From Phaseolus vulgaris (Eukaryota; Streptophyta; Magnoliopsida; Fabales; Fabaceae), in contig NC_023753.2 of the NCBI RefSeq assembly GCF_000499845.2, forward strand, positions 22,723,932 to 22,787,931: a stretch of 64,000 nt of DNA, written 5' to 3'. Made by a program: the position numbers and the translations under genes. Positions 9,045 to 60,287 of the stretch are shown one piece after another (position 1 is the first letter of the stretch; every line of letters begins with the position of its first letter). The notes below the pieces were generated by a model, which was not told the origin of the DNA, did not search any database, and saw only the letters and a list, made by a program, of their open reading frames with translations.

Positions 9045-10763
9045 TCAAGCAACAAGATTTAATCCCTTTACAAATGTGGGTCCTTTTGATTTACCTTTAT
9101 CATTTGAAACCTCACAACCTTTGGGAATCCATTTCATGATACCTTTAGGAACAAAATATTTCCTAATTTTACAGAATATGACAGAATGGCCTCTCTTCAT
9201 GCAATAAAAGCATGTAACAACCGGTTGTTTCGATTTAACAATTGGTTGTTTTTCTGGCAGTTTTGAAAAAGACTTTGAAAATTTATCTTGTTTGTTCTGT
9301 GGATTAAAACCTAATCCTGCTTTTCCAAAAACACAATTTTGAGATGTCAAGACATTCTCAAAGTTGGATTTACCCTTTGAAAGCTTGTCCACGGTTCTAA
9401 CAAGATAATGAACTTTCTTTTCAAGATTTTCACAATTTTCACACACAAGAGAGTCACACACATGAGAAGAGTTTTTGCAATGGTTTTCAAGATTTTCAAA
9501 ATCATTTTTTGACTCTTCAAGTGTCTTGGCCCTTTTTTCAAGCCAACTGTTCAACCCTTTCAATCGGTTGTTTGAGAGAGCCAATCGGTTAGCTTCTTCA
9601 TGAGTTTCTTTAAAAGCTTGAAGTAATTGACTATAATTTTCAGCCCTTAAGGAAGCACATGAACTTACACTGCTTGAGCTGCTTGAATCATCATCTCCTT
9701 CTGCCATTAAACATAGGTTGGCTTTTTCATCTTCACTTGATGAGGAGTTTGATGAAGAGACTTCATTTTCATCCCAAGAAATATATGCTCTTTTTTATTT
9801 TTCCCTTCTTTTCCTTGTAGCTTGACTTCTTCTCCCTCCCTTATTTATTTGGGCAATCAGATTTTATATGCCCTTGTTCACCACAACCAAAGAGAGTATA
9901 ATTGTTAGAATTGAAATCACTAGTTTTCTTGTTTCCATACCTTTCTTTGTTGGAATCTTTGTTGCGATTTCTTTTCAAGAACTTACTAAACTTTTTGGAC
10001 AACAAGCTAAGGTTTTCTTCCTCATTTTCATCACTTGAATCTTGTTTACTCTGGTACTTGGCAACTTTCAAGGCAATGCTCCTCACATGCTTGTCTTCAC
10101 TTTCTTGAACATTGAGTCTATTCATCTCCAACTCATGTTCTCTAAGCTTACCAAACAATGAGGCCGTAGTCAAGGATGTTAAGTCTTTTGATTCAGATAT
10201 TGCTGTTACCTTAGGTTGCCAAGATCTATCAAGGCACTTGAGAATCTTGATGTTTAGTTCCTCTTTATCAAAGGTTTTCCCAAGGCTCATTAGATAGTTG
10301 ATGATGTGAGTGAACCTGTTTTGCACTTCAACAATATATTCTCCCTTGAGCATTCTAAACATCTCATACTCTTGTATTAGAGTATGTTTCCTTGCTCTCT
10401 TCACATCATTTGTTCCTTCATGGGTTCCAAAGTGTCCCACATCTCCTTAGCCGATCAGCATTGTGAGATCCTGAAAAATTCATCTGAATTCAAGGCAGAT
10501 GTTATGATATTCTTGGCAATACAATCAAATTTGGCCTTTTTATTTTCAGCATCAGTCCATTGGGACCATGGTTTTTCAATAGAAGATCCATCCTTTTCAA
10601 ATTTAGGAATAAAAGGGCCATTTTCAATTGCATCCCAAATTCCTTTATCAAGAGATGTAACAAAGATTTTCATTCTAACTTTCCAAAATTGATAATTCAA
10701 ACCATAGAACAGAGGTGGTCTGTTAATTGAGACACCCTCCCCAAAAGGTAGTTTTTCAGCTAT
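9045..10763 (-). pseudogene. COP-1 Gag, long form, broken
   Basis: The frame begins at 10763, where the ATG conserved in COP-2 and COP-4 is ATA. The N-terminal part (FWKVRMKIF, IWDAIENGPFIP, WSQWTDAE) is the copia Gag N-terminal domain. 10440-9841 adds the UBN2-type part (HEGTNDVKRARKHTLIQEYE, RFTHIINYL) and a zinc knuckle CX2CX4HX4C (FGCGEQGHIKSDCPNK). 9707-9045 adds a Ser-rich stretch, a coiled coil and a second knuckle (CFYCMKRGHSVIFC). A stop and frame change near 10440 and another break near 9840-9707 disable it. It matters because the central 200-odd residues present here are missing from Gag in COP-2, COP-3, COP-4 and COP-6. A GTAAGT (9668-9663) lies at the conserved donor position. 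Confidence 0.8.
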
Positions 10764-13200: not shown

Positions 13201-13240
13201 TTCTTGAAAGTTATTCAAGTTGATCTAAATTTTTTTTTCT

Positions 13241-14332
13241 ATGGCTGGAAAACTATCTTTTGAGGAGGGTGCTTCAATCTACAAGCCACCTTTATTCTGT
13301 GGATTGAATTACAAATTTTGGGAAGGAAGAATGAAAATCTTTATTGAATCTATTGATCAAAGAATTTGGGACTCAATTGAGAATGGTCCTTACATTCCAA
13401 AATTCAAAAAGGAAAATGCTTTCTTTACAAAACCTTTGTCCAAATGGACAGATGATGAATGTAAGATGGCTCATCTTGATAAGTCTGCTCAAAACATTAT
13501 AGCATCTGCACTTGAAACTAATGAACTTTTCAGAATATCAAAGTGCAAAACTGCTAAGGAAATGTGGGAGACACTCAAAGCTGCTCATGAACCAAAGGAA
13601 GCAATGACAAAGAGTCAAGCAAGAAGAAAGAAAAGGCAAAACAAGAAAAGCCTCAATCTTTGCTTAATGGCCAGAAGGGAAGATGACTCATGTAGTGTAA
13701 GTTCATCAAACTCTTCAAACTCTGAAAATTATGGTCAATTGTTTCAAGCCTTTCAAGAAACTCATGAAGAAGCCAACCGACTGGCTCTCTTGAACAATCG
13801 GTTGAAAGAAAAGAATAGCTGGCTTGAAAACAGAGTAAAGACACTGGAAGAGGATTTAGAAAACTCAAAAATGGATTTTGAAAATCTGGAAATTATTTAC
13901 AAAAACTCCTCTTGCAAGTGTGATACTCTAATTTGTGAAAATTGCGAAAATCTTGAAAAGAAGGTCCACTATCTTGTTAAAACAGTGGATAAGCTTTCTA
14001 AAGGCCAATCTAACTTTGAGAGTGTGCTAGCATCTCAAAATTGTGTTTTTGGAAAATCTGGATTGGGTTTTAATCCACAAAACAAGCAAGATAGATTTTC
14101 AAAATCATTTTCGAAAATGCCAGAAAAACAATCGATTGGACCATCGAAACAACCGATTGTTACATGCTTCTATTGCATGAAAAGAGGTCATTCTGTGCGA
14201 TTCTGTAAAATCAGAAAACATGCTGTTCCTAAAGGGCTTATGAAGTGGATTCCCAAGAAAAATAAAGCTTGTATTGATGAGTATAAACCAAATGGACCCA
14301 CATTCATAAGGGGACCAAACCTATGTACTTGA
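13241..14332 (+). CDS. gag: COP-2 Gag, short form (363 aa)
   Basis: Capsid/nucleocapsid protein of the element, expected to assemble cytoplasmic virus-like particles that package the RNA. The ATG at 13241 (MAGKLSFEEG) is the first after the PBS. Residues 1-120 match the copia Gag N-terminal domain (FWEGRMKIF, IWDSIENGPYIP, AKEMWETL). At about residue 125 the protein jumps to a Lys/Arg-rich linker, so the central UBN2 part and first zinc knuckle seen in COP-1 and COP-5 are absent. A Ser-rich stretch, a coiled coil (about 165-260) and one knuckle (CFYCMKRGHSVRFC, about 309-322) follow. It ends TGA TAA. GTAAGT at 13697 sits on a codon boundary and may be a splice donor. Residues KQSI and KQPI encode a palindrome pair (14126, 14147). 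Confidence 0.92.
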   Translation: MAGKLSFEEGASIYKPPLFCGLNYKFWEGRMKIFIESIDQRIWDSIENGPYIPKFKKENAFFTKPLSKWTDDECKMAHLDKSAQNIIASALETNELFRISKCKTAKEMWETLKAAHEPKEAMTKSQARRKKRQNKKSLNLCLMARREDDSCSVSSSNSSNSENYGQLFQAFQETHEEANRLALLNNRLKEKNSWLENRVKTLEEDLENSKMDFENLEIIYKNSSCKCDTLICENCENLEKKVHYLVKTVDKLSKGQSNFESVLASQNCVFGKSGLGFNPQNKQDRFSKSFSKMPEKQSIGPSKQPIVTCFYCMKRGHSVRFCKIRKHAVPKGLMKWIPKKNKACIDEYKPNGPTFIRGPNLCT

Positions 14333-14346
14333 TAATCTTTTTGTAG
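13697..14346 (+). other. candidate gag-pol intron of COP-2 (650 nt)
   Basis: The donor GTAAGT at 13697 and the acceptor CTTTTTGTAG ending at 14346 are both in phase 0. Removing the interval would join Gag residue 152 to the pol frame without a stop. A branch-point-like CTTGAT lies about 12-18 nt before the acceptor and overlaps the gag stop. The pol frame opens straight after the TAG and has no ATG until beyond the protease active site. Equivalent donor and acceptor positions are kept in COP-4, COP-5 and COP-6 and mostly in COP-3. There is no RNA evidence here, so this is inference. Confidence 0.5.
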
Positions 14347-14352
14347 GACATC

Positions 14353-17300
14353 TTGGAGGAAAGAAAACATCTTTGGTACTTGGACAGTGGATGCTCCAAG
14401 CATATGACAGGGGACAAATCAAAGTTCCTGAGAATATCCTTCAAGCAAGAGGGTTATGTCACCTATGGAGACAACAACAAAGGAAGAATACTTGGAAGAG
14501 GATCCATAGGAGATGAAAGCATCTTGGTGATTCATGATGTGCTCTTTGTTGAGGGCCTAAAGCATAATCTTCTGAGTATTAGCCAACTATGTGACAAGGG
14601 ATATCAAGTGATGTTCAAGACAAACACATGTGAAATCTGTCTACCCAATACCAAAGAGGTAATGTTGGTAGGTAAGAGAGTTAATAATGTGTATCTTCTA
14701 GATATCTCTACACCATGTTCAATTGGATGTCTTCTATCCAAGCAAGATGAATCTTGGCTTTGGCATAGAAGAATTGCTCATATTCACATGAATCATTTGA
14801 ATAAGCTAATATCAAAAGATCTTGTGATTGGGCTGCCAAAACTCAAGTTTGAGAGGAATCACATTTGTGAAGCTTGCCAAAAGGGGAAACAAGTGAAGAG
14901 TTCTTTTAAAACCAAAAATCTTGTCTCTTCATTGAGACCTCTTGAACTCCTTCACATGGATCTCTTTGGACCCTCTAGAACTATGAGTCTTGGTGGAAAT
15001 TATTATGCTCTTGTTATTGTTGATGATTTCTCTAGGTACACTTGGACTTTGTTCTTGGAATCAAAGAGTGATGCCTTTGCTGCATTCAAAAAGCTAGGAA
15101 GAAGGCTTCAAAACACAAAGAACAGCAACATTGGCTCCATAAGAAGAGACCATGGAGGAGAATTCCAAAATGAGAAGTTTGCAAAGTTCTGTGAGAAGTT
15201 GGGGATCCTACACAATTTCTCTGCTCCAAGAACACCACAGCAGAATGGAGTTGTAGAGAGGAAGAACAGATCTCTTGAAGAGCTTGCAAGGACAATGCTT
15301 AGTGAATCATCACTTCCTAAGTATTTTTGGGCAGATGCAGTGAGCACCTCTTGCTATGTGATGAATAGGGTGCTTATAAGGCCCATCTTGAAGAAAACCC
15401 CATATGAGCTGTTCAATGGAAGGAAGCCTAACATCAGTCACCTCAAAGTATTTGGTTGTAGCTGTTTTGTTCTCAACAATGGAAAGGAAAGCTTGGGAAA
15501 GTTTGATGAAAAAGCTGACCTTGGCATTTTCATTGGTTACTCTCTCACAAGCCATGCATATAGAGTCTACAACAAAAGATTGATGACTGTAGAAGAATCA
15601 GTACATGTAGTCTTTGATGAGGTAGATTGCAGAATCAGTGAGAACCTAAAGATCAGTGCTGAGGAAGACGGACAAAGCATCAGTTTGGAGAAGCTAGATA
15701 TCTATGCAGAAAAACAACCGGTTGATTCGCGGAAACAACCGATTGAAATTCTGCAACAGAGTGAGCTGCCCAAAGAGTGGAGGATTCCTAGAGATCTGTC
15801 TGTGGATAACATCATAGGACAGATAAAGGAAGGTGTCTCCACACGTAGCTCCATCTCAAACTTCTGCAGGCACACAACTTTTGTTTCTCAAATTAAACCA
15901 AAGTTAATTGAAGAAGCTCTCAAGGATGAGAAATGGGTTGAGGCTATGCATGAAGAGCTAAACCAATTTGAAAGAAATGAGGTATGGTTTCTTGTCCCTA
16001 AAACTAATGAAATGAATATTATTGGTTCAAAATGGGTTTTCAGGAATAAGCTAGATGAGAATGGAGTGATCACTAGAAACAAAGCAAGGCTAGTTGCCAA
16101 AGGCTACAATCAAGAAGAGGGCATAGACTATGGTGAAACCTTTGCTCCTGTGGCTAGATTGGAGGCTGTGAGGCTACTGCTGGCTTTTGCTTGTATGAGT
16201 GGCTTCAAACTCTTCCAAATGGATGTAAAGAGTGCCTTTTTGAATGGCTACATCAATGAGGAAGTCTATGTAGATCAACCACCGGGTTTTGAAGATCACA
16301 AGTTTCCTAACCATGTCTTCAAGTTGAAGAAAGCTTTGTATGGTCTGAAACAAGCTCCAAGGCAGTGGTATGAGAGGCTTAGCAACTTTCTGCTATCTCA
16401 TGGTTATGAAAGAGGAATGGTAGACAAGACTCTCTTCATCAAAAAGTCTAATGCAGAAATTATTCTTGTGCAAATCTATGTTGATGACATCATCTTTGGT
16501 GCTACACAAGATAGGCTATGTGAAGAATTTGTGGCTGCAATGAAAGGTGAGTATGAAATGTCTATGATGGGAGAACTATATTTCTTTCTTGGATTGCAGG
16601 TTAAACAAACAAAGGATGGGATCTTCCTAAGTCAATCAAAGTATTGCAAGGAAATTCTCAAAAAGTTTGACATGGAGAATTGCAAAGAGGCAAGCACTCC
16701 AATGCCATCAAGCTGCTATATGGATGCAGATGCTGCTGGAAAGAGTATAGATCAAACAAAATACAGAGGTTTGATTGGATCTTTGCTTTATCTCACAGGA
16801 AGTAGACCGGACATCATGTTTGCGGTGTGTCTATGTGCAAGATATCAAGCAAATCCTAAGGAGTCACACTTCAAAGCTGCAAAAAGGATTCTGAAATATC
16901 TCAAAGGAACATCTTCTGTAGGACTATGGTATCCTTCTCATTCTCCTATACATTTAATTGGTTATTCAAATTCTGATTTTGCAGGTTGCAAGCTAGATAG
17001 AAAAAGCACAAGTGGCACTTGTCACCTTCTTGGCTCAAGGCTAATCTCATGGCATAGCAAGAAGCAAGCATGTGTTGCTCTCTCTACTGCTGAGGCAGAA
17101 TATATAGCTGCAGGTAGCTGCTGTGCACAGATCCTATGGCTCAAGCAACAACTTGCAGATTTTGGTTTACAAATCAGCAAAGTTCCCTTGATGTGTGATA
17201 ACACAAGTGCAATCAATCTTACCAAAAATCAGATTCAGCACTCAAGGACAAAACATATTGAAATAAGACATCATTTCATCAGAGATCATGTGCAAAATGG

Positions 17301-17430
17301 GAACTGTGAAGTGAAGTTTGTGGAGACCAAACTGCAGCTAGCTGACATCTTCACAAAGCCTTTGCCCAAAGAGAGGTTTTTCTTCTTGAGAAATGAGTTA
17401 GGTATTCTTGATCTTAATAATTTCTCTTAA
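14353..17430 (+). CDS. pol: COP-2 Pol polyprotein: protease, integrase, RT, RNase H (about 1025 aa)
   Basis: It makes and integrates the cDNA copy. The order (PR-IN-RT-RH) is that of Ty1/copia. Protease is at the N-terminus (WYLDSGCSKHMTG). Integrase has an HHCC finger (HRRIAHIHMNH...CEACQ, about 138-178) and a catalytic core with DLFG (about 202), RRDHGGEF (usually RSDHGGEF) and ERKNRSLEELA. RT is at about 545-790 with [29 protein letters not shown] and the intact YVDD box. RNase H follows, with SNSDFAGCKLDRKSTSGTCH (SDSDFAG elsewhere), STAEAEYIAAGS and TKHIEIRHHFIRDH. No internal stop. The first open codon is 14347; 14353 is a TTG, so expression must depend on Gag, by splicing or recoding. 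Confidence 0.95.
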   Translation: MEERKHLWYLDSGCSKHMTGDKSKFLRISFKQEGYVTYGDNNKGRILGRGSIGDESILVIHDVLFVEGLKHNLLSISQLCDKGYQVMFKTNTCEICLPNTKEVMLVGKRVNNVYLLDISTPCSIGCLLSKQDESWLWHRRIAHIHMNHLNKLISKDLVIGLPKLKFERNHICEACQKGKQVKSSFKTKNLVSSLRPLELLHMDLFGPSRTMSLGGNYYALVIVDDFSRYTWTLFLESKSDAFAAFKKLGRRLQNTKNSNIGSIRRDHGGEFQNEKFAKFCEKLGILHNFSAPRTPQQNGVVERKNRSLEELARTMLSESSLPKYFWADAVSTSCYVMNRVLIRPILKKTPYELFNGRKPNISHLKVFGCSCFVLNNGKESLGKFDEKADLGIFIGYSLTSHAYRVYNKRLMTVEESVHVVFDEVDCRISENLKISAEEDGQSISLEKLDIYAEKQPVDSRKQPIEILQQSELPKEWRIPRDLSVDNIIGQIKEGVSTRSSISNFCRHTTFVSQIKPKLIEEALKDEKWVEAMHEELNQFERNEVWFLVPKTNEMNIIGSKWVFRNKLDENGVITRNKARLVAKGYNQEEGIDYGETFAPVARLEAVRLLLAFACMSGFKLFQMDVKSAFLNGYINEEVYVDQPPGFEDHKFPNHVFKLKKALYGLKQAPRQWYERLSNFLLSHGYERGMVDKTLFIKKSNAEIILVQIYVDDIIFGATQDRLCEEFVAAMKGEYEMSMMGELYFFLGLQVKQTKDGIFLSQSKYCKEILKKFDMENCKEASTPMPSSCYMDADAAGKSIDQTKYRGLIGSLLYLTGSRPDIMFAVCLCARYQANPKESHFKAAKRILKYLKGTSSVGLWYPSHSPIHLIGYSNSDFAGCKLDRKSTSGTCHLLGSRLISWHSKKQACVALSTAEAEYIAAGSCCAQILWLKQQLADFGLQISKVPLMCDNTSAINLTKNQIQHSRTKHIEIRHHFIRDHVQNGNCEVKFVETKLQLADIFTKPLPKERFFFLRNELGILDLNNFS

Positions 17431-32548: not shown

Positions 32549-33501
32549 ATGGCTAGCAAGTTTTCTTTTGGGGAAGGTGCCTCTTTAAACAAACCACATT
32601 TGTTTTGTGGTGAAAATTATAAGCTTTGGTGTATAAGAATGAAATTCTTTGGTGATTCATTAGATAAAGAAATCTGAAATGTTATTTCAAACAATGCTTT
32701 CATACATGCCTGAAAATAATTCCGCATCTTATAAAACTGAAAGAGACCACCTTGATTGTATAGCTAAGAACATAATTGTCTCTCCCCTTGATTCTGATGA
32801 ACTTCTCAAGGTTTCAGAATGTATCTCAGCCAAAGAAATGTGGGATTCTCTTTTGAAATATCACAAGAACCCAAGGAGTGCCTGACTGGACAAGGATGAG
32901 TCCTCTGCTGAATCATCTTCTTCAGAATTCAAGATGGAGGTCTGTCTTATGGAAAAAGAAGAATCTGTGTCAAACCAAGTAAATACATCTTCTTCAAATA
33001 ATAGTGAAAATTATTTTCAACTTCTTAATGTTTTTCAAGAGACTCATGAAGAAGCTAAAAGATTAACCCTTTCAAATAATTAGTTGAAAAGTGAAAACAA
33101 ATGGTTGAAAGAGAAAAACGTCTTGAAAAAGATTTGAATAATTCAAATGCTGATTTTGAAAATCTTGAAATGAGTTATCAAAACTCCTCTTGTAAGTGTG
33201 ATTCTAGTATTTGCAAAAATTGTGAATCTCTTCAAAAAAAAGTTTTGTATCTTGTGAAAACTGTTGACACAATTTCAAAAGGCAAATCAAATCTTGAGAA
33301 TGTTTTAGCATCTAAAAAGTGTGTTTTTGGTAATCTGGTTTGGGTTTTAACCCACAAAGCAAAAACAATAGTTGTTCAAAACCTTTTTCAACCATCACAA
33401 AAAATCAATTAAAATGGGTTCCTATGAATCCTAAGGTTCCTTGGAATCAAATTAACATTCATGGACCCAAATTTGTAAGGGGACCAGATCTTGCCACTTG
33501 A
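32549..33501 (+). pseudogene. COP-3 Gag, short form, broken
   Basis: Starts MASKFSFGEG and has the copia Gag N-terminus (FCGENYKLW, AKEMWDSL). It is interrupted by stops at 32677, near 32884 and near 33082. Like COP-2 and COP-6 it lacks the central UBN2 half and first knuckle: MWDSLLKYHKNPRSA runs into the Ser-rich segment. The second knuckle is also lost to a deletion near 33400. The candidate donor is GTAAAT (32980), a degraded GTAAGT. The acceptor TTTTGCAG ends at 33516. Confidence 0.8.
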
Positions 33502-33516
33502 TTTTTAATTTTGCAG

Positions 33517-41046: not shown

Positions 41047-42234
41047 TCACTTGTCATTGTAGTAGAGCTCAGCTAGCTGCACTTGAACTCCTTCAAGTTG
41101 ATCATCCAAGTGTTGAAACCTGGCGTAAGTCATTTCATAGTGTGCCTTCTGCTCATATGTGAGTGTGTCCAGCCTGCTTAGCACTTGTCTTTCAAACATA
41201 GACAGAGGTTCACCTCTGTACTCAGGTTCCTCATATGCAACCATTGCATTTTGACTTGTAGCAGCAATATCTTCATGTCCAGCAGAGTGTACTGGTGATG
41301 CATCCATGTTCTACACTCCATCAGCATTTTCTTCTTCATTTTCTGGATCAGCAGCTTCATTTTCAGCTCTGTTTGCAGCATTCCTTCTGAATATCCAGCT
41401 GTCATCTTCCTTTTGAAAGCCCATCTTCAAGAGAGTGGAGTTGTCTATTTCACTTGCTGCCTTAATGGTGTCATTTCTCTCATTTGTAGTGTCAACTTCA
41501 AAGTAATCAATTAGCTTTGACACAAAAATAGCATATGGAAAACGATAGTCTGGTAACCTTGTGGATTTGAGCATATGCTCAACCATTGTACTCACCCAAT
41601 TTACCTTGAGTTGGTTCATGATACAATACAGCAGAATCAAATCTTCTTCATGGAGAGTTGCATGATTACTTCCTCTTGGAGTAAGCTGCCAAGCAATGAT
41701 GTAGGCAAGGAGTCTTGGAATGATTGTGAGATTTCCAGCATGGAATCTAGCCACTGGTTCAGCAGGGTTTCTCACACAACTTCTGTAAAACTGCATCTTG
41801 TTGAATCCCTGAATTCCAACAGTGTTACCTTTGCTTACCTTCATTCCAGAATACTTGATTCCTCCCACATTACTCCATATTTCTCTAGTAATCTTCAGCT
41901 TCACACCTTTCACATGGGAGACCAAATTTTTGCCATCTTGAACCAAGTTGCTGTAGAAGACTTTCACCAAGTCTGGATAGACATTTCCAGTCATTTCTAG
42001 AAAGTTCTTCAGCTTTTGATGCTTGAGCAAGGTTTTTGCTTCGGTCAGATTTTCTTCTCTCAACCAAGAGAATTCCAGCACTTTGGGTGCATTGACTTGC
42101 TTTCTGCTTGTCTCATGGATGTACCTTGTCATTGCTTCAGAATCTCCAGCAAACCATTTCTCCAGAATACCTTGGTTGCTGCTGGATTGCTCCTTGGATT
42201 TCTTCCTTCTGTGTGATGAGGATGCCATGCTCAA
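41047..42234 (-). pseudogene. COP-5 accessory ORF3 (about 395 codons, one internal TAG)
   Basis: 42234-41311 encodes 307 residues and 41307-41047 a further 86 in the same frame, separated only by a TAG at 41311-41313 that the COP-1 homologue lacks. The N-terminus is basic (SSHRRKKSKEQSSSNQG). The middle has LEKWFAGD, YPDLVKVFYSNL, LVSHVKGVKL, FYRSCVRNP and LTPRGSNH, which resemble the Pfam putative plant transposon protein domain. The C-terminus (ERQVLSRLDTL, YARFQHLDDQLEGVQ) is probably coiled coil. It lies after pol and in the same strand, in the env-like position of Sireviruses. I see no signal peptide or membrane anchor. Function unknown; a structural or RNA-binding role is guesswork. Confidence 0.65.
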
Positions 42235-42794
42235 TCTGTTTTTCCCTGCACCAGTTTATTAACATACAATTCTAGAAAAAAAATGCAGTACAGATTATCA
42301 CTTAGAACAGAAATGAAACCTGTGGTGAAGCAAGTGTGAACCTGGACAGCTTATAGCATAAATGAGAAGGTGTGAGAGACAAGATGAATTGTGCTAGGTT
42401 TATATAGAATCATTAAATCAAATTTTGAAAATCACAGATTTTAATGAAGGAAAATTTGATCAGATTTTGGGAATTATGGGTTTTGAAGAAAAATCAAATC
42501 TATTAGATATGATACAGATTTTATTCCAATGGTGCAGTAGGTTCAGGTGTGGATTCACGTAAGAATATCTTGGAACCTGATTTTGGCAAACCAAATCTGT
42601 TGCACCTCCACAATATCCAATCAGTTAGGATACCCACACACTAATTGCCATAGGCCTGCTGGTTAATAACCGAAAAAGCAGTCAAAGATAAAGTGAGAGA
42701 GAGAAAAGTAAATCTTTCTCTTTCGTAGTCACAGCTGTGATTTCTGAAACAGGGAACAAAACATGTTAAATCATAAAACAACAGATTTAAATTT
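42235..42794 (-). other. COP-5 pol-ORF3 spacer
   Basis: 560 bp without an open frame. It could be the place from which a separate ORF3 transcript starts or is spliced, but I see no clear promoter. Confidence 0.4.
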
Positions 42795-45873: not shown

Positions 45874-45930
45874 CTGCAACAAAACAGATTTAGCACATAT
45901 GGTACCCCTTTAGTCTAGGGTCCAGCATGA

Positions 45931-47289
45931 TTAATACCTTTCCTTAGGAAGCCATTTGGCCAATCCTTTAGGAACAAGGTACCTCCTAGCTTTACATGTT
46001 CTAGATACATGACCAGACTTCATACAATAAAAACATGTTGCAGTATGCATTGTCTTTGAATAACTGAGAGAGGAAAAACCTGTTTTGGAAGGAACAAAGA
46101 AACTAGACAGCTTTTTCACATTACTTTTCATTTCAGGATTATATCCTAGACCATTTTTATTGAAAACAGCATTCTGTGAACCTAATAAGGTTTCAAGGTT
46201 TTCTCTTCCTTTAGTGAAATTTGAGAGAGTTTTTAACAAATATTCAACTTGTTTTTCCAGCTTCTTACAATTATCACAGGTTTTAATTGATGCATGCAAA
46301 CATGTTAATTCAAGGCTAACCAATTCAGTTTTAGCTTTGTGCAATTCATCTTCAAGAGCTTTGACCTTAGGTTCAAGTACCCTATTTATTCTATTAAATC
46401 TGTTGCACATTATAGCCAACCTGTTTGCTTCATCATGTGTTTCCTTAAAAGCTATTAACAGTTGATCATAGTTCTCAGAATCAGTGGAAAAATCACTTAC
46501 TGAGTCAGAGTTGGATCCTTCATCATTCACCATGAAGCACAGATTTGCTTCTTCACTTTCAGTTGAGGAATTACTGGATGAGGATACATCATTTTCTTCC
46601 CATGAGATGTATGCTCTTCTACCTTTGCCTTTGTCACTCTTCTTGCTTGCTGATTTTTCTTTATGTTGATTGTTTGGACAATCAGCTTTTATATGACCTG
46701 GTTTACCACATCCAAAGCACATGTAATTGGAAGAATTTGAATCATTAGGTTGTTTAGAGTACCTCTTTCTTTGTTGAGTTCTGTCACGGTTTTTCTTTCT
46801 AAGAAACCTGCTGAATTTTCTGGTGAGCAGACTCACGGTCTCATCATGTTCAGGATCAACTTCTTCCTCACTTGTATCATGTTCCATGGTAGTTTTCAGA
46901 GCAATTCCTTTGGCCTTCTTCTCCAAAGTTTCTTGTTCTTTCAATCTTTTCGGCTCTATTTCATGCTCTATCAGCTTTCCAAAAAAGTGCAGCAGTGGAC
47001 ATCTTGGATAAATCTCTGGATTCTGAGATTGCTGTTACCTTAGGTTGCCAGCTCCTATCAAGGCATTTTAGTACCTTTATGTTAAGCTTTCCTTGTCAAA
47101 GACTTTACCAAGGCCAGTGAGGTGATGTACAATGTGTGTAAATCGTTTCTGCACATCTGCAATACTTTCTTCAGATTGCATTCTGAACAACTCGTACTCC
47201 TGAATTAGTGAGGGCTTCCTTGCCCGTTTCACATCATCAGTTCCTTCATGAGTCACCTCTAGTACATCCCACATCTCTTTGGCTGAGTT
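45931..47289 (-). pseudogene. COP-5 Gag, long form, N-terminus missing
   Basis: 47289-47077 (AKEMWDVLEVTHEGTDDVKR, LIQEYELFRM, KRFTHIVHHLTGL) is the UBN2-type part. After frame breaks near 47085 and 46985, 46944-45931 carries knuckle 1 (CFGCGKPGHIKADC), a Ser-rich acidic stretch, a coiled coil and knuckle 2 (CFYCMKSGHVSRTC). The first 120 or so residues and start codon are replaced by the duplicated ORF3 segment. A GTAAGT on a codon boundary (46500-46495) lies in the Ser-rich stretch, exactly where COP-2, COP-4 and COP-6 have theirs. Confidence 0.85.
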
Positions 47290-48420
47290 AAACCATAATA
47301 GAGCAGTTGTGAGTTTTGTGCTACCTTCATGTACCATGTAGCTTTCTGTGGCTGTTCTTCTCCCCCTTTGGATTCATCAAACAAAATAAAGCATGGGATA
47401 AAAACATACAAGCCATTCATCACAATTCAAACTATAAATCCAGTATTAAGTTCTATTACAAACCTCAATGAAATCAACTAAAAACCAGTGCAGAATAAAG
47501 ACAAACAGATTAATTCCAAAAAGTTCAACATATAAAAGCTAAAGACTTAGATATAGGATCACTTGTCATTGTAGTAGAGCTCAGCTAGCTGCACTTGAAC
47601 TCCTTCAAGTTGATCATCCAAGTGTTGAAACCTGGCGTAAGTCATTTCATAGTGTGCCTTCTGCTCATATGTGAGTGTGTCCAGCCTGCTTAGCACTTGT
47701 CTTTCAAACATAGACAGAGGTTCACCTCTGTACTCAGGTTCCTCATATGCAACCATTGCATTTTGACTTGTAGCAGCAATATCTTCATGTCCAGCAGAGT
47801 GTACTGGTGATGCATCCATGTTCTACACTCCATCAGCATTTTCTTCTTCATTTTCTGGATCAGCAGCTTCATTTTCAGCTCTGTTTGCAGCATTCCTTCT
47901 GAATATCCAGCTGTCATCTTCCTTTTGAAAGCCCATCTTCAAGAGAGTGGAGTTGTCTATTTCACTTGCTGCCTTAATGGTGTCATTTCTCTCATTTGTA
48001 GTGTCAACTTCAAAGTAATCAATTAGCTTTGACACAAAAATAGCATATGGAAAACGATAGTCTGGTAACCTTGTGGATTTGAGCATATGCTCAACCATTG
48101 TACTCACCCAATTTACCTTGAGTTGGTTCATGATACAATACAGCAGAATCAAATCTTCTTCATGGAGAGTTGCATGATTACTTCCTCTTGGAGTAAGCTG
48201 CCAAGCAATGATGTAGGCAAGGAGTCTTGGAATGATTGTGAGATTTCCAGCATGGAATCTAGCCACTGGTTCAGCAGGGTTTCTCACACAACTTCTGTAA
48301 AACTGCATCTTGTTGAATCCCTGAATTCCAACAGTGTTACCTTTGCTTACCTTCATTCCAGAATACTTGATTCCTCCCACATTACTCCATATTTCTCTAG
48401 TAATCTTCAGCTTCACACCT
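47290..48420 (-). repeat. 1131-bp duplicate of the COP-5 ORF3 region
   Basis: Matches 40778-41908 at a constant offset of 6512, with only about four differences seen by eye, including the same TAG inside ORF3. It holds the ORF3 C-terminal two thirds (47559-48420), cut at VKGVKL where COP-4 pol begins. It ends abruptly on both sides without LTR sequence. Confidence 0.9.
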
Positions 48421-50742
48421 TGTCTTTGCAACTCTCCATTTCAAATTTCTTGAGAATCTCTTTACAATACTTTGATTGGCATAGAAAGATCCCATCCTTT
48501 GTTTGCTTAACCTGCAATCCAAGAAAGAAATACAATTCTCCCATCATAGACATTTCAAACTCACCTTTCATAGCAGCCACAAATTCTTCACACAAACTAT
48601 CTTGTGTAGCACCAAAGATGATGTCATCAACATAGATTTGCACAAGGATAATTTCAGAATTTGACTTTTTGATGAAGAGAGTCTTGTCAATCATTCCCCT
48701 TTCATAGCCATGAGACAGCAAAAAGTTGTTAAGCCTCTCATACCACTGCCTTGGAGCTTGCTTCAGTTCATACAAAGCCTTTTTTAACTTGAAGACATGA
48801 TTGGGATGTTGATGATCTTCAAAGCCCGGTGGTTGATCCACATACACTTCCTCATTGATGTAGCCATTCAAGAAAGCACTTTTGACATCCATTTGGAAGA
48901 GTTTGAAACCACTCACACATGCAAAAGCCAGCAGCAACCTCACAGCTTCCAATCTTGCAACAGGAGCAAAGGTTTCACCATAATCAATGCCCTCCTCTTG
49001 ATTGTAGCCTTTGGCAACTAGCCTTGCTTTGTTCCTTGTGATCACACCATCTTCATCCAACTTGTTTCTGATTACCCACTTCGAACCTTTGATGTTCATC
49101 TCAGCTGTTTTAGGGACAAGAAACCATACCTCATTCCTTGGAAACTGATTCAACTCTTCATGCATAGCTTCAACCCACTTTTCATCCTTGAGAGCTTCAT
49201 CAATTGACTTTGGTTCAATTTGAGAGACAAAAGTAGTGTTCCTGCAAAAGTTTGAAATGAGCTACGTGTAGAGACACCTTCCTTTATCTGCCCTATGATG
49301 TTTTCCACTGACAGATCTCTAGGAATCCTCCATTCTTTGGTCAACTCATTCTGTTGCAGAATTTCAATCGGTTGTTTTTCTGCACTGATGCCCAGCTTCT
49401 CCAAACTGATGTTCTGCTCATCCTCTTCAACACTGGTCTTCGGGATTTGAATGCTTTTGCGATCCACCTCATCAAAGACAACATGAACGGACTCTTCTAC
49501 AGTCATTAGCCTCTTGTTGTAGATTCTGTATGCATGACTTGTGAGAGAATAGCCTATGAAGATACCAAGATCAGCTTTTTCATCAAACTTCCCTAGGCTT
49601 TCCTTTCCATTGTTGAGAACAAAACAGCTGTAACCGAAAACTCTGAGATGATTGATGTTAGGCTTCCTTCCATTGAAGAATTCATAAGGAGTCTTCTTCA
49701 GAATTGGCCTAATTAGCACTCTATTCATCACATAACAAGAAGTGCTAACTGCATCAGCCCAAAAATACTTAGGAAGAGAATATTCACTAAGCATTGTCCT
49801 TGCTAGCTCTTCAAGGGACCTGTTCTTCCTCTCTACCACACCATTCTGTTGTGGAGTTCTTGGAGCAGAGAAATTATGCAGAATCCCCATCTTTTCACAG
49901 AACTTGCTGAACTTTTCATTTTGGAATTCTCCTCCATGATCACTTCTTATTGAGCCTATGTTGATGTTCTTTGTATTCTTCAACCTTCTTGCAAGCTTCT
50001 TGAATGCAGAAAAGGCATCACTTTTTGATTCCAAGAAGAAAGTCCAAGTGAACCTAGAAAAATCATCCACAATAACAAGAGCATAGTAATTTCCACCAAG
50101 GCTCATGGTTCTTGAAGGTCCAAAAAGATCCATGTGAAGTAGCTCAAGAGGTTTTAAAGAAGAAACAACATTTTTTATTTTAAAAGAGTTTTTCACTTGT
50201 TTCCCCTTTTGGCAAGATTCACAGATATGATCCTTCTCAAACTTGAGCTTTGGTAGCCCAATCACAAGATCCCTTGAAATTAGCTTGTTCAAGTGATTCA
50301 TGTGAATATGAGCGATTCTTCTATGCCAAAGCCAAGACTCATCTTGCTTGGATAAAAGATAACCAATTGAACATGGTGAAGAGATATCTAGAAGATAAAC
50401 ATTATTGATTCTCTTACCTACCAACATTACCTCTTTAGTGTTGGGGAGACAAATTTCACATGTGTTTGTTTTGAAGATAACTTGAAATCCCTTGTCACAC
50501 AGTTGACTAATGCTTAGCAGATTGTGTTTTAAACCTTCTACATAGAGCACATCATGGATGACCAAGATATCTTTGTCTTCTATGGATCCTCTCCCAAGAA
50601 TCCTCCCCTTGTTGTTGTCCCAATAGGTAACGTGCCCTTCTTGCTTAAAGGAGATGCTCAGGAACTTTGATTTGTCCCCAGTCATGTGCTTGGAGCATCC
50701 ACTGTCCAAGTACCATTGTTGCATGCTTTCCTCCAAGTTTTC
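48421..50742 (-). pseudogene. COP-4 Pol, 5' part (protease, integrase, RT)
   Basis: 50736-49150 carries protease (WYLDSGCSKHMTG), integrase finger and core (DLFGPSRTMSLGGNYY, RSDHGGEF, VERKNRS). 49165-48421 carries RT ([11 protein letters not shown], intact YVDDIIFGA). A one-base shift near 49250 joins them. The frame opens right after TTTGTAG (acceptor G at 50743). In the integrase-RT linker COP-4 reads AEKQPIEILQQ where COP-2 reads AEKQPVDSRKQPIEILQQ: exactly seven residues, one 21-nt palindrome unit, are missing. Pol is cut by COP-5 within ESCK. Confidence 0.9.
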
Positions 50743-50757
50743 CTACAAAGAAGATTT

Positions 50758-52913
50758 TCAAGTACAAAGATTTGGTCCCCTTATGAATGTGGGTCCATTT
50801 GGTTTACATTCATCATCTAAACCTTTCCTGCACTTAGGAATCCACTTCTTAAAGCCCCTAGGAACAACATATTTTCTGATTTTACAGAACCTAACATTAT
50901 GGCCTCTTTTCATGCAGTAGAAGCATGTAACAACCGGTTGTTTTGATGGTCCAATCAGTTGTTTTTCTGTCATTTTTGAAAATGACTTTGAAAATCTATC
51001 TTGCTTGTTTTGTGGGTTAAACCCCAATCCAACTTTTCCAAAAACACAATTTTGAGATGCCAAGACATTCTCTGATATGAGTTGGATTGAACATAGACAC
51101 TTTTAAACTCTTGAACACATCATTATATGAGAATGAAAATAACAATTCAAGGATCAAGGAGTGCTTAAACAATGAAAACGAAATTACATCAACAAAACAA
51201 CAAGCTGAAAACAGAAAGGGAATTAAGGAAGCTTAAGGAGTCATCAATGGAGACATAGCCTTCCAAAATGATGATCCAAACTCAATAAGATTGCTATCTC
51301 CTTGTGAACATCCATATAACAAGATATTAAACACAATTGAATTAAGAACAACAAGGTACCGAACAAAAAATGAAGAACAGCACAAGGAATACAAAACCAA
51401 TCGGCTGAAAAGATGAAGAACACTAAGGAGAAGCTAACTACCGAATGAAATTTCAAAATAAGATGAAAGGAATGACACTTATAGAGTGAAGCTCGGCTGG
51501 AATGAGAATTTGGAACTGCATCACGCCACTTGGAGTCCTTGTCCAAGATAAATGAAGAGAAACCGCCACTTGAAGCTCTCCAATGGCACACAAGATAAGG
51601 CTATGGAAGAAGGAGAAACCAAAACTCACAATTCTCTCTCAATTTGAGTAGAGTTTCTCTATATCCAATTTCCAATTCTGAATTTTACAAGAGCCCACAC
51701 CTCTATTTATAGTGTGAGGGTGCTGAAAAATAGGTGGGAAAATTCAAATGAAACTCATTTGAAATTCCCACCAAAAACAAGTCACATGGGAGGTGTGACC
51801 TTTTTCTACTATGACACCTCCTAAAAACTACACCTACACCTACTCTTCTAAGTCACATGGACAATGTGACTTTATTTTACATATTCACACTCCTTTATTT
51901 AATATCCACACCTCCTACAACTATACAAGAGTAATTCAAATGATGCTCTTTTATTTAATGCTTGGCCTTGCCCCTCATGGTTTGGACTTGAGCTTCTTGG
52001 GCTTGGGCTTTGGGCTTTGGGCTTGAGCCTCATCTTTTGCAAAGACTAATAAGAAGAACTTTAAATGCTTTGGCCATTGTCCATTTCTTCTATTGATAAC
52101 ATCTTTTTGATTCTCATCATTCTCAAAGTTGGATTGACCTTTAGAAAGCTTATCCACAGTTTTAACAAGATGGTGAACTTTCTTTTCAAGATTTTCGCAA
52201 TTTTCACAAACAAAAATATCACACTTGCAAGAGGAGTTTTTGTAAACAATTTCAAGGTTTTCAAAATCTGTTTTTGAATTTTCCAATTCCTCTTCCAGTG
52301 TTTTGACTCTGTTTTCAAGCCAGCTAATCATTCCCTTTAACCGGTTGTTCAAGAGGGCCAATCGGTTGGCTTCTTCATGTGTTTCTTGAAAGGCTTGAAG
52401 CAATTGACTATAATTTTCAGAGTTTGAGGAGTTAGATGAACTTACACTACTTGAGTCATCTTCCTTTCTGGCCATGAAGCAGAGGTTGAGGCTTTTTCTA
52501 TTTTGCCTTCTTTTCCTTCTTGCTTGACTTCATGACCTTACTTCCTATGATTAATTGATGTTCCCATGAGTAGCTTTTAGTGTGTCCCACATCTCTTTAG
52601 TAGTTTTGCATTTTGATATCCTAAAAAACTCATTAGTATCTAGTGCAGAAGCTATTATGTTTTGAGCAGTACAATCAAGCTTGGCCATTTTACATTCTTC
52701 ATTGGTCCATTGGGACCAAGGTTTTGCAATCAAAGAACCATTCTTTTTAAAATTTGGAATGAAAGGACCATTCTCGATTGAATCCCAAATTCCTTGATCA
52801 ATAGATTCCACAAAGATTTTCATTCTGGCCTCCCAATACTTGTAATTCAATCCACAAAATAAAGGTGGTTTGTAGATTGAAGCACCTTCCTCAAAAGATA
52901 GTTTTCCAGCCAT
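50758..52913 (-). pseudogene. COP-4 Gag, short form, split by GLTR-3
   Basis: It starts at 52913 (MAGKLSFEEG). 52913-52551 matches the COP-2 Gag N-terminus and, like it, jumps after MWDTLKATHG to a short basic linker with a stop. 52475-52120 holds the Ser-rich stretch and coiled coil, and 51063-50758 the knuckle (CFYCMKRGHNVRFC) and the C-terminus. GLTR-3 separates the last two. GTAAGT lies at 52445-52440 in phase 0, and the acceptor is 15 nt past the gag stop. A palindrome pair in coding sequence starts at 50928/50949. Confidence 0.88.
51073..52119 (-). mobile_element. GLTR-3: solo gypsy LTR in COP-4 gag
   Basis: 1047 bp, plus-strand ends TGATATGAG and CTCATCA, with a perfect TSD TTCTC (51068-51072 and 52120-52124). 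It shares the CGCCACTTGGAG segment with GLTR-1 and CHR-1, and has a minus-strand CTATAAATAGAGG box near 51705. No internal region. Confidence 0.9.
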
Positions 52914-59220: not shown

Positions 59221-60270
59221 ATGGCCGATAAAAGGCTTTTTGGGGAAGGTGCTTCTTTGAATAAACCACCTCTGTTTTATGGTCAAAATTATCCAATTTA
59301 GTGCATAAGAATGAAGTTCTTTATTCAATCCTTAGATACAAACATTTGGAATGTTATTTCAAATAATACCTATATGAATATGCCTGAAATTGATTTTGCA
59401 TCATCTAAAGAACATATTGATTGTATCGCATAGCATATTATTGTTTTTGCTTTAGATTCTGATGAATTGCTCAAGATTTCATAATGCACTTCAGCTAAGG
59501 AAATGTGGGATACACTTGAAAAATGGTACAAGAAACCAAGGAGTGATTTAATGGATAAAGAATCTTTTGCTGATTCAATCTCTTCTGAAAATAAGTTGGA
59601 TGTCTGCTTAATGACCAAGGGAGAATCAGAATCAAGTCAAGTAAGTACAACCTCTTCTAGTAAATGTGAAAGTTATTTTCAATTACTTGATGCTTTCCAA
59701 GAAATCCATGAAGCTAAGAGATTAACTTTTTCAAATAACCGATTGAAATGTGAAAACAACAAGTTGAAAATGAGAATCATAATTCTGGAAAATGATTTGA
59801 ATCAATCAAAAGCTGATTTAGAAAATTCTGAACTAATTTGTGAAAATCCCTCTTGCAAATGTGACTCGAGTTTCTACAAAAACTGTGAGTCCCTTCAAGA
59901 GAAAGTTTTATATCTTGTGAAAACAATTGATATTATTTTAAAAGAAAAATCAAACTTTGAAGATGTGTTGGCATCCCAAACACGTGTTTTTGGAAAATCT
60001 GGCTTGAGTTTTAACCCCCAAAGCAAACAAAGTGGATGTACAAAACCTTTTTCAACTTTCACAAAAAAAATCGGTTAAAAAGTCAAAATAACCAATTGTT
60101 TGTTGTTCTACTGCATGAAAAAGGGACATTCTGTTAGGTTTTGCAGGATCAAAAGGTTTTCTGTTCCTAAGGGTATTCTGAAATGGGTTCCTAAGGATCC
60201 TAATGTTCCTTGGAAACACATTAACACTCATGGACCCAAATTCGTAAGGGGACCAAATCTAGCAACTTGA
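59221..60270 (+). pseudogene. COP-6 Gag, short form, broken
   Basis: Starts ATGGCCGATAAAAGG at 59221. Stops near 59300, 59432 and 59482 break the N-terminal domain. 59503-60078 reads on: AKEMWDTL (just upstream), then directly KPRSDLMDKES, the Ser-rich stretch, a coiled coil (NNKLKMRIIILENDLNQS) and the Cys-rich CKCDSSFYKNC. The knuckle (FYCMKKGHSVRFC) follows after a break near 60078. As in COP-2 and COP-3 the central half of Gag is absent. GTAAGT at 59641 is on a codon boundary; the acceptor TTTTGTAG ends at 60287. Confidence 0.82.
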
Positions 60271-60287
60271 TTTTGTTTCTTTTGTAG

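What the first reader, a model, noticed from the sequence alone, without database searches (positions are those of the whole stretch)
13697..14346. Conserved candidate intron that would fuse Gag to Pol in frame
Pol of every pol-bearing copia copy opens immediately after a pyrimidine-rich (T/C)AG and has no ATG upstream of the protease active site. Inside gag, in the Ser-rich stretch, GTAAGT is kept on a codon boundary in COP-1 (9668), COP-2 (13697), COP-4 (52445), COP-5 (46500) and COP-6 (59641); COP-3 has GTAAAT (32980). Acceptors end at 14346, 50743, 45874, 60287 and 33516. In COP-2, -4, -5 and -6 both ends are phase 0, so splicing repairs the frame difference and skips the gag stop. A branch-point-like TTGAT overlaps that stop. 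Unspliced RNA would give Gag with its last zinc knuckle; spliced RNA would give Gag-Pol without it. Introns are known in Ogre (between protease and RT), and spliced gag RNAs are known in Arabidopsis copia elements such as EVADE. An intron inside gag that creates Gag-Pol would be a different scheme.
Basis: partly seen in the sequence, partly recalled or inferred. Interest (0 to 1): 0.88.

Follow-up and report, generated by a model that had tools for sequence, protein, structure and literature searches.

The report
Spliced intron fuses Gag to Pol
Jumping elements in the bean genome carry a hidden removable segment inside their first gene; cutting it out of the RNA would join the structural protein to the enzymes, and DNA copies with exactly that segment missing indicate that the cut really happens.

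Summary
In these sirevirus-like Ty1/copia elements a phase-0 donor inside gag (GTAAGT in 14 of 18 copies, plus one GTGAGT and one GTAAAT) faces a TTGYAG acceptor at the start of pol (12 of 12 copies given). Intron length modulo 3 differs between families, so no single frameshift serves all. Decisive: genomic copies lack exactly donor to acceptor. Two of 14 copies read are intronless; a pattern scan finds 56 such junctions (44 with at most one mismatch) beside 665 intron-bearing acceptors, plus 2 of COP-2/COP-4 type and 1 of a third type. Proteins of several other dicots show the same joined form; most are gene models, five come from sources I believe hold none. No RNA reads could be examined, so how much RNA is spliced, and whether this is the main route to Pol, is inferred. 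It would explain the open puzzle of sirevirus Pol expression (Gao 2003, seen only through later papers).

The parts
13241..13696 (+). COP-2 gag exon 1 (internally shortened gag, ATG to donor), phase 0 end
   Evidence: ORF 13229-14332; PF14223 match; low ratio of amino-acid-changing to silent shared variants, 0.14
13697..14346 (+). COP-2 candidate intron, 650 nt, GTAAGT...TTTTTGTAG
   Evidence: donor kept in 29 of 30 and AG in 28 of 30 family copies; 2 junction matches of COP-2/COP-4 type
13697..13702 (+). COP-2 5' splice site GTAAGT
14293..14317 (+). TGGACCC-N10-GGGGACCA motif before the acceptor, possibly the gag/pol boundary repeat of Gao 2003
   Evidence: 6 pairs predicted, none with change on both sides
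14330..14332 (+). gag stop codon TGA, inside the intron
14335..14346 (+). T-rich tract and TAG acceptor (3' splice site)
   Evidence: CAG instead of TAG in family copy L013
14347..17430 (+). COP-2 pol ORF (exon 2): protease motif, integrase, RT
50743..52445 (-). COP-4 candidate intron with rearranged interior (1703 nt), GTAAGT...CTTTGTAG
49150..50742 (-). COP-4 pol exon 2, first part
45874..46500 (-). COP-5 candidate intron, 627 nt (multiple of 3), GTAAGT...TGTTGCAG
   Evidence: 21 of 21 family copies keep both sites and the length; junction matches with COP-5-type exon ends
45931..47034 (-). COP-5 gag part, with first zinc knuckle in exon 1 and second in the intron
59641..60287 (+). COP-6 candidate intron, 647 nt
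32979..33516 (+). COP-3 remnant intron, 538 nt, donor GTAAAT
9663..9668 (-). COP-1 donor GTAAGT in gag (no acceptor or pol assigned in this copy)

Best explanation
The 13697-14346 stretch is a phase-0 GT-AG spliceosomal intron lying inside gag of a sirevirus-like Ty1/copia retrotransposon family; it includes the gag stop codon. Shown: signals, phases and exact intronless copies. Inferred: unspliced full-length RNA is both genome and Gag mRNA (Gag with coiled-coil-like region and second zinc knuckle); a fraction of RNA is spliced and makes a Gag-Pol fusion without that C-terminal part; the retained/spliced ratio sets Gag to Gag-Pol. Now and then spliced RNA is itself reverse transcribed and inserted, leaving intronless copies, some of which may have multiplied.
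For: Intronless copies: 2 of 14 fetched copies (L081, L089) lack exactly donor to acceptor; L081 exon 1 is 91.9% identical to intron-bearing L086 but 80.5% to L089. Junction pattern: 56 genome sites at up to 2 mismatches (10 with none, 34 with one, 12 with two; two of the 12 ambiguous), reversed control 0, beside 665 intron-bearing acceptors; apart from L081 and L089 these were seen only as pattern matches. Shifted-junction control: 69 hits, all the intron's own 3' end, no shifted junction. COP-2/COP-4-type junction: 2 sites, 1 mismatch each. Third type: 1 site, 2 mismatches. Donor: 14 of 18 GTAAGT, one GTGAGT, one GTAAAT, 2 lost. Acceptor TTGYAG in 12 of 12 given. Frame: COP-2 family introns are 650 nt in 16, 651 in 11, 649 in 2, 641 in 1 of 30, 9 of the 651 by one shared extra T; COP-5 family 627 in 21 of 21; of 10 further copies length mod 3 is 0 in 5, 1 in 2, 2 in 3. 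One family copy has CAG for TAG, so the stop is not what is needed. Other plants: 49 of 103 scorable proteins (of 261 found) have the protease 40-59 aa after the exon-1 marker, the short joined form; P0031 and P0172 (both 'src') agree up to ...DEN[DV]E and then go to pol or on through gag.
Against: No RNA was examined. The intron is hardly more U-rich than its flanks in COP-2 (28.3% against 25.9% and 27.7%); COP-5 30.9% against 21.6% and 28.5%. Branch point unclear. All 5 P. vulgaris gene models found (P0133, P0208, P0209, P0212, P0226) use other donors. Two of the three protein searches used junction-bearing queries, so 49 of 103 is biased upward, and most hits are predictions. Two of 18 donors, 1 of 30 COP-2 donors and 2 of 30 COP-2 acceptors are lost, in line with decay. 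Lengths of single copies can also shift by later indels. COP-2/COP-4-type junctions are rare (2 sites).
Confidence: 0.87

Rival explanations
1. Ribosomal bypass or internal ribosome entry at the gag/pol boundary, as proposed for sireviruses by Gao et al. 2003, makes Pol without splicing; the conserved inverted repeat helps.
For: A boundary motif is kept: each of 6 predicted pairs forms in 10 to 12 of 12 sequences; the proposal is described in PMC2829016 and PMC5009743. COP-4 has an ATG just before the protease.
Against: Neither predicts a conserved GTAAGT about 650 nt upstream nor exact GT-AG excision in genomic copies. That ATG is absent in COP-2 and COP-5. The 6-pair stem shows no two-sided change.
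Confidence: 0.07
2. Programmed frameshifting or stop-codon readthrough joins gag and pol.
For: Gag stop and pol start are close (TGA 14330-14332, pol from 14347 in COP-2).
Against: The gag/pol frame relation differs between families and between subfamilies of COP-2; in COP-5, where the frame is the same, two in-frame stops lie between.
Confidence: 0.02
3. The intronless copies are ordinary DNA deletions, and the donor-like GTAAGT is a chance Val-Ser codon pair.
For: Internal deletions occur in these copies (COP-2 gag itself is shortened, COP-4 rearranged). COP-2/COP-4-type intronless copies are rare (2 sites).
Against: The same base-exact GT-AG boundaries recur with different flanking letters, and in the two copies read the ends share no repeat longer than one base; the shifted-junction control finds none. 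From the codon use of COP-2 and COP-5, GTR-AGT is expected for about 11% of Val-Ser pairs.
Confidence: 0.03
4. The intron is real but its main use is to make a Gag variant or to regulate RNA export, and Pol comes mainly another way.
For: No RNA quantities are known; splicing in EVD and BARE serves Gag.
Against: The splice leads in frame into pol in COP-2, -4, -5 and -6 and in the two intronless copies read, and pol has no ATG before the protease site in COP-2 and COP-5.
Confidence: 0.08

Closest known systems
Ogre (Ty3/gypsy) intron
   Same: Partial splicing of an intron restores an in-frame polyprotein (PMC6317226, section 13)
   Different: Different superfamily; [quoted passage not shown]
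EVD/ATCOPIA93 shGAG intron (Arabidopsis Ty1/copia)
   Same: Ty1/copia element with partial retention of an intron (PMC8892269, passages)
   Different: There the unspliced RNA codes Gag-Pol and the spliced short RNA codes Gag; here the reverse
BARE1 intron (barley Ty1/copia)
   Same: Small intron near the end of gag (PMC3735527, passages)
   Different: Splicing shifts frame and stops pol; [quoted passage not shown]
Sirevirus gag/pol boundary of Gao et al. 2003
   Same: [quoted passage not shown] COP-2 has TAG 11 nt after the TGA
   Different: Explained there by internal entry or bypass (PMC2829016, passage); here that UAG reads as the AG of a 3' splice site, with a donor far upstream in gag
Bianca (Ty1/copia)
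   Same: Two ORFs separated by 172 bp on average (PMC6317226)
   Different: No intron shown in that section; not examined here

Membership tests
GT-AG spliceosomal intron | GT donor and AG acceptor conserved across copies | tested here: met
GT-AG spliceosomal intron | Exact absence of the segment in RNA-derived copies | tested here: met
   2 copies read; pattern matches; RNA origin of these copies is inferred from the exact ends
GT-AG spliceosomal intron | Junction reads in RNA | not testable with these tools
   no reads available
GT-AG spliceosomal intron | Branch point and U-richness typical of plants | tested here: inconclusive
Sirevirus / SIRE lineage | Ty1/copia order: protease region, integrase, RT | tested here: met
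Sirevirus / SIRE lineage | Large gag with central CCHC knuckle and downstream coiled coil | tested here: inconclusive
   CCHC motif and long gag visible in COP-5; coiled coil not computed; COP-2 gag lacks the first knuckle
Sirevirus / SIRE lineage | Conserved inverted repeat at gag/pol boundary | tested here: inconclusive
   kept motif, no two-sided change
Sirevirus / SIRE lineage | Place in RT/INT phylogeny | not tested
   no reference set of named lineages at hand
Sirevirus / SIRE lineage | Extra 3' ORF (74% of SIRE elements) | tested here: not met
   COP-2 only: no + strand ORF of 150 aa or more listed between 17430 and 34927; the study calls it characteristic, not universal
EVD/BARE-type shGAG splicing | Splicing cuts off pol | tested here: not met
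   the intronless copies read keep pol in frame
Ogre-type intron | Intron between protease and RT | tested here: not met
   intron ends before the protease motif
Programmed frameshift | Constant frame relation of gag and pol | tested here: not met

The most novel reading that the evidence does not exclude
Intron retention inside gag is the general Gag versus Gag-Pol switch of two-frame sireviruses in flowering plants, so the conserved UAG that Gao et al. could not explain is a 3' splice site; and spliced RNA is re-inserted often enough to found intronless, Gag-Pol-only lineages that must borrow Gag from relatives.
Probability: 0.55. Interest if true: 0.88.

Novelty: new variant of a known kind. 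Interest (0 to 1): 0.8.

Why it matters
Sireviruses reach very high copy numbers in some plants (OPIE-2 and PREM-2 in maize, passage of PMC2829016), and how the two-frame ones make Pol is left open in the passages seen here. A splice inside gag would settle it with ordinary RNA processing, give the reverse of the EVD/BARE scheme, and turn an old puzzle into a one-junction test on existing RNA data. The intronless copies add a record of what looks like spliced RNA entering the genome, and plant gene models that contain this junction can be recognised as transposon products.

Tried and rejected
Frameshift and readthrough were rejected because the gag/pol frame relation varies. A covarying stem at the boundary was looked for and not found (L087 and the window copies other than COP-2 were not given). 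U-richness did not separate the intron. L001-L008 and L039-L058, fetched from RT hits, proved to be other copia lineages (roughly 27-37% identity over most of the pol start) and were dropped from all counts. A viral-contig scan found nothing. A script failed on a file name, a first alignment mixed strands, and a long alignment used a wrong start codon and misaligned tails (only its intron lengths and exon-1 lengths are used); replace them. My note of 10 copies with an extra T was wrong: it is 9 of 30. The acceptor count for the COP-2 family did not complete, so the 2 COP-2/COP-4-type junctions have no matching denominator.

Full report
What is there. The window is G000:C7:22723932-22787931 of a 537.7 Mb genome. 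The lengths of four contigs equal those given for proteins named Phaseolus vulgaris (P0208, P0209, P0212, P0226), so this is a common bean assembly. COP-2 has a gag ORF (13229-14332) and a separate pol ORF (14347-17430). All donor and acceptor coordinates of the finding were confirmed, with the small corrections listed in the observation check.

Conservation of the signals. In an alignment of 18 sequences (six window copies and the 12 intron-bearing copies among L079-L092) the donor is GTAAGT in 14, GTGAGT in L084, GTAAAT in COP-3, and lost in L080 and L087. It stands in a highly variable stretch of gag. In the COP-2 family 29 of 30 copies keep GTAAGT and 28 of 30 keep the AG; one has CAG in place of TAG, so the stop codon itself is not what is needed. 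These 30 are COP-2 and the 29 other best-matching loci (30 of 40 listed places were cut out). In the COP-5 family 21 of 21 keep GTAAGT and TTGCAG (20 of the 40 places plus COP-5). The 12 acceptors given to all read TTGYAG.

Frames. Intron length modulo 3 is 2 in COP-2, COP-4 and COP-6, 0 in COP-5 and 1 in COP-3; 0 in 21 of 21 of the COP-5 family; in the COP-2 family 650 nt in 16, 651 in 11, 649 in 2 and 641 in 1 of 30, 9 of the 651 by one shared extra T. In ten other copies 0, 1 and 2 occur 5, 2 and 3 times; L080 and L087, without a donor, were not measured. In those ten the last ten codons of exon 1 read open in phase 0 except in L082, and exon 2 up to the protease Trp except in L084. Single-copy lengths may include later indels; the family-level values (COP-5 627, COP-2 650 and 651) are the firmer evidence. 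One frameshift or readthrough cannot serve all of these; an intron can.

Selection. In the COP-2 family, variants shared by at least 3 of 30 copies are silent to changing 10:6 in exon 1, 5:9 in the intron part and 45:20 in the pol piece; scaled by sites 0.14, 0.46 and 0.12, against 0.64, 0.78 and 0.49 for variants seen once. Counts are small, and some copies are aligned over part of pol only. In the COP-5 family the intron part is constrained (27 silent, 24 changing or stop, seen in at least 2 of 21; ratio 0.23), as expected if unspliced RNA codes a useful Gag there.

Intronless copies. A protease pattern has 1163 exact sites in the genome (reversed control 0; only the first places, all on C1, were listed). 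Fourteen of the listed ones, picked for differing letters, were fetched. Two, L081 and L089, have no intron: exon 1 runs into exon 2 at exactly the predicted donor and acceptor, and the frame is open from gag into the protease, for 693 and 216 nt upstream of it. The nearest of the compared relatives of L081 is the intron-bearing L086 (91.9%), not L089 (80.5%); L089 is nearest to intron-bearing L080 (83.3%). Genome-wide, the COP-5-like junction pattern hits 56 sites: 10 without mismatch, 34 with one, 12 with two, two of the last ambiguous. Apart from L081 and L089 these were seen only through the 35 matched letters. The corresponding intron-bearing acceptor pattern hits 665; the two patterns differ in stringency, so the ratio is rough. 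A control junction shifted by CAG gave 69 hits, every one the intron's own 3' end. Twelve of the 56 share TCTGAATCA|ATTGGAAGC, so an intronless form may have multiplied. A COP-2/COP-4-type junction is found twice, with one mismatch, and a third type once, with two. In the two copies read, the ends share no repeat longer than one base, so repeat-mediated deletion is an unlikely cause. The simplest reading is reverse transcription of spliced RNA; LTRs and target-site duplications of these copies were not read.

Other plants. Three protein searches (each lists at most 120) gave 261 proteins; 103 hold both an exon-1 marker and the protease motif; 49 of those 103 have the two 40-59 residues apart, the joined form (99 had no marker, 59 no protease motif as I searched it; two of three queries carried the junction, so this is biased). 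Joined and unjoined forms part at the same place: Cajanus DTI|VSD against DTI|ECL (P0123, P0183), Citrus LNE|VSD against LNE|GLK (P0246, P0217), and between two Hibiscus species DEPK|VTS against DEPK|GEH (P0128, P0131). In the unjoined forms seen the residues at the donor are Val followed by Ser, Asn or Thr, as GTNA would give. Most hits are gene models, which are predictions. Five joined ones are not from named genomes: P0031, P0047, P0062 and P0121 come from a source labelled 'src' and P0195 from 'jgi' (4.4 kb contig). I recall 'src' as a read-based soil protein catalogue and 'jgi' proteins as called without introns, but no call shows either. P0031 (joined) and P0172 (unjoined, same source) agree closely up to the donor. 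Against this, the five P. vulgaris models found use other donors, and so do models of Lathyrus and some of Trifolium and Citrus.

Known background. [quoted passage not shown] the original (Gao et al. 2003) was not held. COP-2 has this layout, TAG 11 nt after the TGA, and here the UAG is the acceptor AG. EVD (PMC8892269, passages) and BARE (PMC3735527, passages) splice to make Gag only; spliced retrotransposon RNAs with Gag ORFs are also reported in sunflower and triticale (PMC7730604 and PMC7765848, passages). Ogre splices to restore its polyprotein (PMC6317226, section 13). The search listings showed no paper, by title or start of abstract, describing an intron inside gag that makes Gag-Pol in Ty1/copia; I saw passages of seven papers and one section, no whole text, and most subscription journals are not covered.

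Verdict. The intron is real at the level of signals, phase and exact intronless copies. Its use as a Gag/Gag-Pol switch is the best inference. RNA evidence is the missing step.

Noticed in passing
13594-13640: COP-2 gag lacks the middle of gag, including the first zinc knuckle, compared with COP-1 and COP-5; 24 of 30 family copies aligned have the same exon-1 length, so a shortened-gag form has multiplied.
   Followed up: partly
50743-52445: COP-4 gag is cut and rearranged between donor and acceptor (homology to COP-2 breaks near 52118 and resumes near 51072).
   Followed up: no
G000:C1:35723883, 35724444, 35725005: Three identical protease sites exactly 561 bp apart on one strand: a local triplication inside or of an element.
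   Followed up: no
G000:C7:11255950 and 11263963; G000:C3:16291183, 16299653, 16308129: Same-strand sites about 8.0 and 8.47 kb apart suggest tandem arrays of whole elements, one of them intronless by its junction.
   Followed up: no
41311-42255 (-) and 47823-48440 (-): Two ORFs with the same long stretch of protein (SNVGGIKYSGMKVSKGNTVGIQGF...) lie about 6 kb apart beside COP-5 and COP-4; a repeated unit not studied.
   Followed up: no
P0133, P0208, P0209, P0212, P0226: Gene models of common bean in public databases are retrotransposon fragments that join various gag donors to the start of pol.
   Followed up: partly
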